Below, one piece after another: positions 1 to 2,591 of a stretch of DNA of 40,095 nt. A program made the position numbers and the translations under genes. Every line of letters begins with the position of its first letter. Positions within the stretch are counted from its first letter, which is position 1. Below the pieces are notes generated by a model. That model worked only from the letters and a program-made list of their open reading frames with translations, made no database searches and was not told where the DNA came from. The DNA lies in contig JAICPI010000022.1 of the NCBI GenBank assembly GCA_025929895.1, forward strand, positions 1-40,095, written 5' to 3'. Origin of the DNA: Thermoleophilia bacterium (GTDB taxonomy: Bacteria > Actinomycetota > Thermoleophilia > Gaiellales > Gaiellaceae).

Positions 1-195
<195 letters not shown>

Positions 196-258
196 GAACT
201 CGTGTCAGTCGCTATGGAGTTTTGAGGGTGTGCGCGAGAGCGACACGCCTTGACAACT
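196..258 (+). other. 23S-5S internal transcribed spacer
   Basis: This is the short spacer between the 23S 3' end and 5S rRNA. It contains no tRNA. It should carry the RNase processing stem that pairs with sequence 5' of 23S, which cannot be seen here. Confidence 0.7.
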
Positions 259-374
259 TTCGGCGGTCATAGCGGCGGGGGTACACCTCTTCCCATTCCG
301 AACAGAGCAGTTAAGCCCGCCAGCGCCGATGGTACTCGGAGGGCAACCTCCCGGGAGAGTAGGACGCCGCCGAA
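259..374 (+). rRNA. rrf: 5S ribosomal RNA
   Basis: This is a 116-nt 5S gene. The 5' TTCGGCGGTC pairs with the 3' GACGCCGCCGAA to close helix I. The conserved loop sequences CCATTCCGAACAG and GTTAAGCCCG are at about 292-318, and GGGAGAGTAGG is near the 3' end. It is directly downstream of 23S, so it is the last rRNA gene of the operon. Confidence 0.96.
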
Positions 375-379
375 TCTTT

Positions 380-423: not shown

Positions 424-927
424 GTGGAGCTCCGCGACGGCGACCTCGTGCTGCGGCCGTTCACGCTCGACGACGTGCCGGCGATCGCGCGCGCGTGCCA
501 GGACCCGGAGATCCAGCGCTGGATCCCGGTGATCCCGCGGCCGTACACGGAGGAGGACGCCAGGACGTTCGTGTTGGCCGACGACCTCGGACACCAGTTC
601 GCGATCACCGAGTCGGTGACGCTCGCGGGTTCGATCGGAATGCGGGTGAACCAGTTCCGCGTCGGGCACATCGGCTACTGGTGCGCCCCGGAGGCGCGTG
701 CGCGCGGGATCACGACCCGGGCTCTACGGCTCGTGAGCCGATGGGGGCTCGAGGAGCTCGGTCTCGGCCGGGTCGAGCTGATCACGGATCCCGACAACAC
801 CGCGTCGCAGCGCGTCGCGGAGAAGGTCGGGTTCCGGCGCGAAGGCATTCTGCGCTCGCACCTGCTCCACCCGGACGGACGCAGGCGCGACTCCGTCATG
901 TTCTCGCTCCTGCCGGGCGAGCTCTAG
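424..927 (+). CDS. GNAT family N-acetyltransferase (RimJ/RimL type)
   Basis: A 167-residue cytoplasmic acetyltransferase of the RimJ/RimL branch, which uses acetyl-CoA to acetylate protein N-termini or small amines; the substrate is not predictable. It begins with the typical strand LRDGDLVLRPFTLDD. Motif A lies around residues 83-103 (GYW..PEARARGI) and forms the acetyl-CoA pyrophosphate loop. Motif B lies around 125-141 (N..S..VAEKVGF..EG). The GTG start is chosen because the domain begins immediately after it and a -10 sits 6 nt upstream. It converges with the HtpX gene and the two stop codons share CTAG (4-bp overlap). Confidence 0.9.
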   Translation: MELRDGDLVLRPFTLDDVPAIARACQDPEIQRWIPVIPRPYTEEDARTFVLADDLGHQFAITESVTLAGSIGMRVNQFRVGHIGYWCAPEARARGITTRALRLVSRWGLEELGLGRVELITDPDNTASQRVAEKVGFRREGILRSHLLHPDGRRRDSVMFSLLPGEL

Positions 928-1760
928 GCGGCGCGCAGCTTCTCGCGCCACTCGGGGTCGAGGTCCCGAAGCCGCCGCACGCGCTCCTCCGTCGGCGGAT
1001 GCGTGGCGAACATCGCCGCGAGCCCCTTCGGGTCGAACGGGTTGACGGTGTAGAGGGGCTCGGTGGCCGGGCTCGCGCCGAACTCGACGAGCTCGCCCGC
1101 GAGCTCGAGCCGCAGCAGCGCGTCCGCGAGCCCGTGCGGCGACTCGCAGAGCGCGGCCGCGTAGCGGTCCGCCGCGAACTCGCGCTTCGGTGAGAGCATC
1201 AGGTGGACGAGCGCGGCGGCGAGCGGGCCGAGGACGAACAGGAGCGCCCGTTGCAGGAAGCCGCCGATCCGGGTCGCTTCGACGAGCGCGCCCGCGATCA
1301 CGACGACGGTCTCCTGCGTGAGCACGTCGCGCGCGCGTACGTGCCCGAGCTCGTGTGCGAGCACGCCCTCGAGCTCCTCCGGCGGCGCGGCGGCGAGCAG
1401 TCCGACCGACACCGCGATCGCGGAGCCCGCCGGGCCGCGGCCGGCGGCGAGCGCGCGCGGGTGCCCGTCCGGGATCAGGTAGAGCTTCGGCTTCGCGACG
1501 TTCGCCCTGGCGGCCAGGCGCTCGAGCGTCGAGTGGACGATCGGCCCCTCCGCGAGCACGAGCTCCCGCGCGCCGACCATCCCCATCACGACGCGGTCGA
1601 AGTACCAGTACAGGCCGGCCGCGGCGAGCAACGTGCAGAAGACGACGGTCGAGAGCAGGCGGTACCCGCCCGCGGCCCAGCCGAGCAGCCCGAGCCCCGC
1701 ACACACCACCGCGACCAGCGCCCAGACCTTGAACAGGTTCCGAGCGGCGGCGAGTCGCAC
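924..1760 (-). CDS. htpX: Zinc metalloprotease HtpX-like (M48B)
   Basis: A 278-residue membrane-bound zinc endopeptidase of the M48 family, expected to degrade misfolded membrane proteins from the cytoplasmic face. Two N-terminal hydrophobic segments (about residues 11-30 and 34-53) precede the catalytic HELGH at 136-140. The third zinc ligand is the Glu in KREFAADR (E194). Another hydrophobic stretch lies at about 172-190. The length is normal for HtpX. GTG start at 1760. It is the last gene of a minus-strand operon after the small protein that ends at 1764, with a 3-nt gap. A second, divergent M48 protein is encoded at 28902-30092. Confidence 0.9.
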   Translation of the reverse strand: MRLAAARNLFKVWALVAVVCAGLGLLGWAAGGYRLLSTVVFCTLLAAAGLYWYFDRVVMGMVGARELVLAEGPIVHSTLERLAARANVAKPKLYLIPDGHPRALAAGRGPAGSAIAVSVGLLAAAPPEELEGVLAHELGHVRARDVLTQETVVVIAGALVEATRIGGFLQRALLFVLGPLAAALVHLMLSPKREFAADRYAAALCESPHGLADALLRLELAGELVEFGASPATEPLYTVNPFDPKGLAAMFATHPPTEERVRRLRDLDPEWREKLRAA

Positions 1761-1763
1761 CCG

Positions 1764-2006
1764 CTACCCCTCGTCGCGCTCTTCGTCGATCCCGCGCGGC
1801 GGCCAGTCGGGCTCCGGCGCGTCGCAGCGGCTCGAGCAGTGGAGGGAGGCGATGTTCTGGAGCGGCACGAGGATGTGGTTGTTGAGCTCGATGTGCGCGA
1901 CGTCCTCGATGTAGCAGTAGGCGGTCAGCACGCCCTCCTGGTACTCGCCTCCGAACAGGGCGACCTCGACCTGCTCGCCCTTGTACTTGTTCGTGTAGTC
2001 CTCCAC
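1764..2006 (-). CDS. Small conserved protein with Sm/Hfq-like strand pattern
   Basis: An 80-residue cytoplasmic protein that I do not recognise by family name. Residues 10-41 read GEQVEVALFGG..QEGVLTAY followed by a hydrophobic strand ending IEL. Residues 43-56 read NHILVPLQNIASL. This alternation resembles the Sm1 and Sm2 strands of Sm/Hfq proteins (V.V.L..G....G.L then ..V....I). The tail from 57 is Cys/Pro/acid-rich and probably disordered. Unlike Hfq there is no clear N-terminal helix. A -10 (TAGACT, 2015-2020) sits 8 nt before the GTG start, inside the end of the upstream gene. The gene could also be cotranscribed with that phosphatase (6-nt gap). The Sm assignment is inference. Confidence 0.8.
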   Translation of the reverse strand: MEDYTNKYKGEQVEVALFGGEYQEGVLTAYCYIEDVAHIELNNHILVPLQNIASLHCSSRCDAPEPDWPPRGIDEERDEG

Positions 2007-2012
2007 CGGCGG

Positions 2013-2591
2013 TCAGTCTATCGGCGCCAGTTTCCCGTTCTTCGCGGCGTATCGGGCCAGCGAGCAGTTGGCCACGGCCGGAATCGACCGGTGATCGCGG
2101 ACGTAGTCGAGCCCTCGGGCGAGCGCGTGGACGACCCGGATCGAGCCGCCGTGCGCGACGACGAGGACGGTCTCGTCGGCGTGCAACCGGAGCACATCGT
2201 CGACGAACGCGTGGATCCGCGACGCGAACGCGTCGAACGGCTCGGCATCGGCGGCGCCGAACCCGTCGCCCGCCTGCCAACGGCGGTGGTCGTCGACGAA
2301 GCGCCGCTCGATCTCCGTCGTCGTCAGGCCTTCCCAGGAGCCGAACCCTCGCTCGCGCAGCCGGGGGTCGAGCTGGACCGGGAGCCCGAGGCGCTCTGCG
2401 ACGATCTCGGCGGTCTCCCGCGCGCGGGCGAGGTCGCTCGAGTAGATCGCGTCGACGCCGTCGAGCAGGTCGGCGAGCGCGCGCGCCTGCCTGCGGCCGA
2501 CCTCGTTCAACGGCGTGTCGGAGTGACCCTGCCAGCGGCCGGCAGAGTTCCAGTCCGTCTCGCCGTGGCGGGTGAGGAGGAGCTGCGTCAC
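2013..2591 (-). CDS. Histidine phosphatase family protein (phosphoglycerate mutase-like)
   Basis: A 192-residue branch-1 histidine phosphatase. The phosphohistidine motif RHGE is at residues 8-11, the second active-site His is in VVAHGGS (H147), and the acidic donor region LRERGFGSWEG is at 78-88. Members act on 3-phosphoglycerate, fructose bisphosphate, nucleotides or cobalamin/mycothiol intermediates, so the substrate is open. Because gpmI at 24084 already supplies phosphoglycerate mutase, this one is more likely a phosphatase. GTG start, first gene of the operon with the 80-residue protein and HtpX. Confidence 0.92.
   Translation of the reverse strand: MTQLLLTRHGETDWNSAGRWQGHSDTPLNEVGRRQARALADLLDGVDAIYSSDLARARETAEIVAERLGLPVQLDPRLRERGFGSWEGLTTTEIERRFVDDHRRWQAGDGFGAADAEPFDAFASRIHAFVDDVLRLHADETVLVVAHGGSIRVVHALARGLDYVRDHRSIPAVANCSLARYAAKNGKLAPID
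2015..2020 (-). promoter_or_regulatory. Internal -10 element TAGACT for the 80-residue protein gene
   Basis: On the minus strand TAGACT ends 8 nt before the GTG at 2006. It lies at the very end of the histidine phosphatase gene, so the last two operon genes could be transcribed separately as a leaderless mRNA. Confidence 0.4.

What the first reader, a model, noticed from the sequence alone, without database searches (positions are those of the whole stretch)
1764..2006. Small protein with Sm/Hfq-like sequence pattern in an actinobacterium
The 80-residue protein has an alternating strand pattern (GEQVEVALFGG..QEGVLTAY...IEL, then HILVPLQNIASL) close in spacing to the Sm1 and Sm2 motifs, plus a short disordered tail as in Hfq. 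Classical Hfq is generally missing from actinobacteria, so an Sm-like protein would be a candidate RNA-binding protein. I see the pattern directly; the fold and RNA binding are inference.
Basis: partly seen in the sequence, partly recalled or inferred. Interest (0 to 1): 0.6.

Follow-up and report, generated by a model that had tools for sequence, protein, structure and literature searches.

The report
Acidic Sm-fold protein of Gaiellales
The small protein is real and highly conserved in one order of soil and water actinobacteria, and it is predicted to fold like the RNA-binding Sm/Hfq proteins, but it lacks their known RNA-contact residues and is strongly acidic, so it looks like a new Sm-fold family more likely to bind a partner protein or a metal than to replace Hfq.

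Summary
The ORF at 1764-2006 (minus strand, GTG start, 80 aa) is a real gene. It is single-copy, under purifying selection, and 74-91% identical among its closest relatives across the Gaiellales. No relative was found outside that order. It has its own conserved TAGACT -10 element, mostly 6-10 nt before the start codon, so the transcript is probably leaderless. In the family Gaiellaceae it sits directly upstream of an HtpX-type M48 protease gene. No Pfam or NCBIfam family matches it. AlphaFold2 gives a confident five-stranded barrel with a 3-10 turn between strands 4 and 5, and 49 of its top 50 PDB fold matches are Sm/LSm/Hfq-type proteins. The RNA-binding inference is not: the Hfq proximal-site residues (Lys-His) and the Sm1 Asp/Asn are absent, the barrel has no Lys or Arg in 27 of 28 members, pI is about 4.2, and the loop equivalent to the RNA-binding Sm1 loop is variable. 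Conserved instead are the beta4-beta5 (Sm2) edge and a family-specific HCxxxCD...WPPxG tail. A Rof-like Rho inhibitor is unlikely because nearly the whole order lacks Rho. Best reading: an order-specific Sm-fold protein used as a protein-binding, possibly metal- or redox-sensing, module.

The parts
1764..2006 (-). Sm-fold protein gene (80 aa, GTG start, stop at 1764-1766)
   Evidence: ORF; conserved family; dN/dS and codon-position pattern
2015..2020 (-). TAGACT, -10 type element 8 nt before the GTG; implies a leaderless mRNA (inference)
   Evidence: TANNNT 5-14 nt upstream of the start in 68 of 71 relatives vs 1.3% at control positions; TANNNT as actinobacterial -10 motif in PMC3898074
1977..1988 (-). 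residues 7-10 KYKG, the only basic patch before the barrel; by eye in register with the Hfq rim arginines
   Evidence: K7 (K/R) and Y8 invariant, K9 K/R in 25 of 28; register is by eye, not structural
1836..1976 (-). residues 11-57, predicted five-stranded Sm-like barrel
   Evidence: pLDDT about 90 over most of this span; Foldseek PDB hits
1836..1877 (-). residues 44-57 HILVPLQNIASLHC, beta4 / 3-10 turn / beta5 (Sm2 position), most conserved block
   Evidence: column counts; secondary structure
1824..1841 (-). residues 56-61 HCSSRC, invariant H56, C57, R60, C61
1791..1805 (-). residues 68-72 WPPRG, conserved tail motif
   Evidence: W68, P69, P70 invariant in 28 of 28
1767..1790 (-). residues 73-80, acidic disordered tip
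   Evidence: 48% Asp+Glu on average over the family; pLDDT <50
924..1760 (-). HtpX-type M48 metalloprotease, downstream partner gene (3-nt gap)
   Evidence: Pfam PF01435 E 5.7e-27; same order in the Gaiellaceae loci, median estimated gap 12 nt in 80 loci
2013..2591 (-). histidine phosphatase (PGAM-like), usual upstream gene
   Evidence: Pfam PF00300 E 4e-57; neighbour in most loci

Best explanation
This is an order-specific, single-copy Sm-fold protein. SHOWN: a conserved coding gene with its own conserved promoter element, an operon-like position before htpX in Gaiellaceae, a confidently predicted five-strand barrel of Sm type, strong conservation of the beta4/beta5 block and of the HCxxxCD...WPPxG tail, and loss of the residues that bind RNA in Hfq/LSm. 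INFERRED: it most likely assembles through the beta4-beta5 edge, as Sm proteins do (ring or smaller oligomer). Its conserved face and the Cys/His tail then bind a partner protein, possibly with a metal ion or a redox switch at H56-C57-C61 together with H38 or H44, rather than binding U- or A-rich RNA in the ring pore. In Gaiellaceae the likely setting is envelope/proteostasis stress together with HtpX, but the HtpX link is not universal in the order. My estimates: Sm-like fold 0.85; oligomer by the Sm edge 0.5; no canonical RNA pocket 0.7; metal or redox role of the Cys/His motif 0.4.
For: Fold: AF2 core pLDDT about 90 with E-E-E-E-(3-10)-E order; same from a 63%-identical member used as query. 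PDB Foldseek: 49 of the top 50 are Sm/LSm/Hfq or LSm-type (Edc3/Scd6), probability about 1, E 0.012-0.05, TM to target up to 0.64; the second model also has Sm/Hfq as the largest group, with RimP, WYL and Rof among the others. Weak sequence echo: the LSM Pfam model is touched by 1 of 24 members at E 0.21, yeast LSm7 at E 1.4, and hhalign to an LSm set scores as high in only 2 of 200 column shuffles. No canonical RNA site: 0 Lys/Arg in residues 11-57 in 27 of 28 members, mean pI 4.2, residues 32-35 and 37 variable. Conserved H38, H44, H56, C57, R60, C61, W68, P69, P70. Own promoter. htpX next door.
Against: No Foldseek hit reaches E 0.001, and short barrels match each other easily. Both AF2 inputs are shallow (close homologues only). 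No oligomer model could be run and no coordinates were available, so the metal site and ring edge are not tested. The htpX neighbour is missing in f2 (5S/23S rRNA lies there) and in f4 (different locus), so a strict HtpX role is unlikely. Acidic Sm subunits that do bind RNA in hetero-rings exist (general knowledge).
Confidence: 0.5

Rival explanations
1. A true RNA chaperone that takes the place of Hfq in these Hfq-less bacteria: an Sm ring that binds RNA through the rim-like patch K7-Y8-K9 with Y30, and is tuned by its acidic tip as Hfq is.
For: Sm-type fold. No Hfq in 150 genomes of the class. K7/K9 and aromatic Y30 fall, by eye, where E. coli Hfq has its rim arginines and F39. The C-terminal tip is about 48% acidic, as in Hfq tips described in PMC9037510.
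Against: Proximal and distal site residues absent; barrel without Lys/Arg; Hfq profile similarity no better than shuffles; single order only.
Confidence: 0.22
2. A monomeric or dimeric SH3-like/Sm-like small barrel that is a ligand or metal sensor (WYL- or RimP-C-like in fold only), using the Cys/His cluster as a zinc or redox site, with no ring.
Against: The beta4-3-10-beta5 block is the most conserved part, as expected for the Sm oligomer edge; fold hits are mostly ring-forming Sm proteins. No oligomer test was run.
Confidence: 0.25
3. A Rof (YaeO)-like protein: an acidic Sm-fold protein that blocks transcription terminator Rho.
For: Rof is small with an Sm-like fold and acts by binding Rho (PMC11018626); a Rho-Rof structure is among the fold hits.
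Against: No Rho in this genome or in 60 of 61 genomes of the order; no profile similarity to E. coli Rof.
Confidence: 0.02
4. Not a gene: a chance ORF in high-GC DNA (a longer ORF overlaps on the plus strand).
For: Many spurious ORFs overlap here.
Against: Deep protein conservation, codon-position pattern and purifying selection in this frame, promoter conservation.
Confidence: 0.01

Closest known systems
Hfq (Pfam PF17209)
   Same: Size, predicted five-strand barrel, short beta3-beta4 turn, 3-10 turn in the Sm2 position, disordered acidic C-terminal tip; Hfq chains dominate fold hits.
   Different: No YKH(A/S)-type Sm2 residues, no proximal or distal RNA residues, no Lys/Arg in the barrel, no confident N-terminal helix; no sequence-profile similarity.
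Archaeal SmAP / eukaryotic LSm (Pfam PF01423)
   Same: Sm1-like V.V.L.GG....G.L..Y pattern; closest by sequence profile (2 of 200 shuffles as good; LSm7 E 1.4).
   Different: Sm1 Asp and Asn absent (Cys at the Asp position, by eye), Sm2 Arg-Gly replaced by Pro-Leu; below every LSM cut-off; family-specific Cys/Trp-Pro tail.
Rof / YaeO (Pfam PF07073)
   Same: Small Sm-fold protein that works by binding a protein; appears among fold hits of the second model.
   Different: No profile similarity; its target Rho is absent here.
Cyanobacterial Hfq that binds the pilus ATPase PilB
   Same: Sm-fold protein in a bacterial protein complex, with no known RNA substrates (PMC8092324); Synechocystis Hfq 3hfo is among the second model's hits.
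   Different: That protein is a recognised Hfq homologue; this one is not by sequence.
WYL domain (PafBC) and RimP C-terminal barrel
   Same: Sm/SH3-like folds found in actinobacteria (PMC6789036; RimP and BrxR hits).
   Different: Those are domains of larger proteins with their own motifs; this is a stand-alone 80-residue protein.

Membership tests
Sm/LSm/Hfq fold (superfamily level) | Five strongly bent strands with a 3-10 turn between beta4 and beta5 | tested here: met
   AF2 models; fold hits. Prediction only; no hit at E<=0.001.
Sm/LSm/Hfq fold (superfamily level) | N-terminal alpha helix stacked on the barrel | tested here: inconclusive
   Absent in the window protein's model, one short helix H5-8 in the L099 model, both at lower pLDDT than the barrel.
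Sm/LSm/Hfq fold (superfamily level) | Hexameric or heptameric ring through beta4-beta5 pairing | not testable with these tools
   No multimer prediction available; the beta4-beta5 block is the most conserved, which is compatible only.
Hfq (PF17209) | Significant match to the Hfq profile | tested here: not met
   No match in the own genome at E<=10, none in 150 class genomes; hhalign not above shuffles.
Hfq (PF17209) | Sm2 KH motif (H57) at the proximal RNA site | tested here: not met
   The turn reads P48-L49-Q50-N51; no K or H there in any of 28 members.
LSM (PF01423) | Match above the curated LSM cut-off | tested here: not met
   Best member E 0.21; genome scans of the class give no match over cut-off.
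LSM (PF01423) | Sm1 Asp/Asn in loop 3 and Arg-Gly in Sm2 | tested here: not met
   C31 at the Asp position, variable 32-35 and 37, P48-L49 at Arg-Gly (register by eye).
Rof (PF07073) | Binds Rho; occurs with Rho | tested here: not met
   Rho absent from the own genome and from 60 of 61 order genomes.
RNA-binding protein (function) | Binds RNA in vitro or in vivo | not testable with these tools
   Needs experiment.

The most novel reading that the evidence does not exclude
A new class of bacterial Sm ring, confined to the Gaiellales, whose conserved Cys/His tail holds a metal or acts as a redox switch, and which serves as a post-transcriptional or protein-complex hub in actinobacteria that have neither Hfq nor, in most of the order, Rho.
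Probability: 0.2. Interest if true: 0.75.

Novelty: new variant of a known kind. Interest (0 to 1): 0.45.

Why it matters
No Hfq homologue has been identified in actinobacteria by sequence search (PMC6789036), and what does its job there is an open question. A stand-alone Sm-fold protein that is more conserved than its neighbours, DnaG and dGTPase included, is a concrete candidate to test. If it binds RNA, it would be an unexpected Sm ring in this phylum. If it does not, it adds another example, beside Rof and cyanobacterial Hfq, of the Sm fold turned to protein binding. The near-absence of Rho in the same order makes its RNA biology worth a look in any case.

Tried and rejected
Pfam and NCBIfam scans of the window protein and of diverged members: nothing above noise. 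PDB sequence search: no hit with one sequence, noise plus LSm7 with the profile. Viral contigs: none encodes a relative. Relatives outside the order: relaxed search of 300 class genomes gave only short, mostly tail matches; eight of these were translated and rejected as chance, e.g. a CxxC zinc-ribbon-like ORF in L128. The phylum sample found only Gaiellales. Rof-like action on Rho rejected because Rho is absent. BFVD viral fold hits were mixed, mostly uncharacterised proteins, not informative. The TIGR00767 hits outside the one Rho of G015 were read as ATPase cross-matches (partial model coverage, far below cut-off).

Full report
OBSERVATION. The ORF exists exactly at 1764..2006 on the minus strand (GTG start, 80 aa): VEDYTNKYKGEQVEVALFGGEYQEGVLTAYCYIEDVAHIELNNHILVPLQNIASLHCSSRCDAPEPDWPPRGIDEERDEG. 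It lies 3 nt upstream of an HtpX-type M48 protease gene and just downstream of a histidine phosphatase gene.

IT IS A REAL GENE. A scan of 84,980 species genomes returned 63 loci with relatives at 74-91% identity, nearly all labelled Actinomycetota/Thermoleophilia/Gaiellaceae. Searches with the family alignment found it in 68 of 299 class genomes, every one inside the window's own order, in 8 of 397 phylum genomes, again only that order, and once in its own genome. The order is taken to be Gaiellales from the record titles. A relaxed search outside the order gave only chance matches. Codon positions vary 0.085/0.046/0.241 and median dN/dS is 0.18. In the locus comparison it is usually the best conserved gene (mostly 80-90% identity, against about 45-50% for most phosphatases, 50-70% for HtpX and 55-70% for DnaG).

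PROMOTER. In 68 of 71 distinct upstream regions a TANNNT box, mostly TAGACT, ends 5-14 nt (mode 9) before the start codon; at control positions the rate is 1.3%. It is kept even where the phosphatase gene is not upstream. TANNNT is the -10 motif of mycobacterial promoters, many of them leaderless (PMC3898074). A leaderless transcript is therefore inferred, not shown.

CONTEXT. In the Gaiellaceae (f1) the next gene is htpX (80 loci, median estimated gap 12 nt). In f2 the neighbour on that side is 5S/23S rRNA, and in f4 the gene sits at another locus after a PH-domain-like membrane protein. In f3 (L101) only a degenerate remnant is left after the phosphatase gene. The window itself starts with the 3' end of 23S and a 5S rRNA. 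The htpX link is thus strong in one family but not universal.

FOLD. Sequence libraries give nothing significant. AF2 with 28 family members gives block pLDDT of about 90 for residues 11-50 (82 for 51-60) and strands 12-17, 22-33, 36-41, 45-48, 52-57, with a 3-10 turn at 49-51; residues 72-80 are disordered. A second run with the most diverged member (63% identity to the window protein) as query gives the same topology. Foldseek against the PDB: 49 of 50 top hits are Sm, LSm, Hfq or LSm-like decapping proteins, and the remaining one is RimP. The second model again gives mainly Sm/Hfq, with some WYL, RimP, Rof and unrelated small barrels. E-values are modest (0.012 at best). Profile comparison with an LSm set scores as high in 2 of 200 column shuffles; with Hfq it is at chance.

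RNA SITES. In 28 aligned members residues 11-57 contain no Lys/Arg in 27 members and 6-7 acidic residues; mean pI is 4.2. The 3-10 turn reads P-L-Q-N (P-L-V-N in f4), so the Hfq Lys-His and the LSm Arg-Gly are missing. The Sm1 Asp position holds Cys31. Positions 32-35 and 37 are among the most variable of the barrel, the opposite of an RNA-binding loop. Invariant positions include the glycines 10, 19, 20, 25, then L27 T28 A29, H38 E40 L41, H44 I45 L46 P48 L49 N51 A53, H56 C57 R60 C61 D62 and W68 P69 P70. The register to Hfq is by eye. In it K7/K9 and Y30 fall at the Hfq rim site, the only feature left that favours RNA. The acidic tip (48% Asp+Glu) resembles Hfq tips (PMC9037510).

MECHANISM. 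The best-supported reading is an Sm-fold module that self-associates by the conserved beta4-beta5 edge and uses its conserved Cys/His-Trp-Pro tail for a partner, metal or redox function. RNA binding in the ring pore is unlikely. The Rof precedent (an Sm-fold protein acting on Rho, PMC11018626) shows that the fold can work this way, but Rho itself cannot be the target in most of the order: the Rho RNA-binding domain is not found in this genome or in 60 of 61 order genomes. Full-length Rho is over cut-off only in G015 of 41, while 59 of 120 class genomes, all from other families, have it.

MEMBERSHIP AND NOVELTY. The fold criterion is met by prediction; the Hfq and LSM profile and motif criteria are not met. 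I therefore do not file it as Hfq or LSM, but as an apparently undescribed Sm-fold family of the Gaiellales. The paper search found nothing joining Gaiellales and Hfq. Hfq itself is absent from 150 class genomes.

LIMITS. No multimer, no coordinates, shallow alignment, no expression data.

Noticed in passing
whole genome G000 and its order; positive case L117 (G015): Transcription terminator Rho appears to be missing from almost the entire order (1 of 61 genomes has the RNA-binding domain; 1 of 41 passes the full Rho model), while it is common in other families of the class.
   Followed up: partly
L009, L011, L045, L075, L083 at the gene start: The conserved start position reads ATC instead of GTG/ATG in several relatives, still right after the TANNNT box; either a rare ATC start on a leaderless mRNA or a different true start.
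   Followed up: no
L101:1124-1237 (-): A degenerate remnant of the gene (only the HxLxPLQNVASLHCSSRC... part) persists downstream of the phosphatase gene in family f3, so the gene seems to have been lost there.
   Followed up: partly
window 1-375: The window begins with the 3' end of a 23S rRNA and a 5S rRNA gene; in family f2 the rRNA genes lie directly next to the Sm-fold gene.
   Followed up: partly
L044: A contig labelled Acidobacteriota (REEB338) carries a copy 80% identical with Gaiellales gene order; probably a mis-binned contig.
   Followed up: no
L099 3730-4659, L100 4100-5170: In family f4 the gene lies next to a membrane protein with a bacterial PH-like domain (recognised by eye, not scanned), with no PGAM or htpX nearby.
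   Followed up: no
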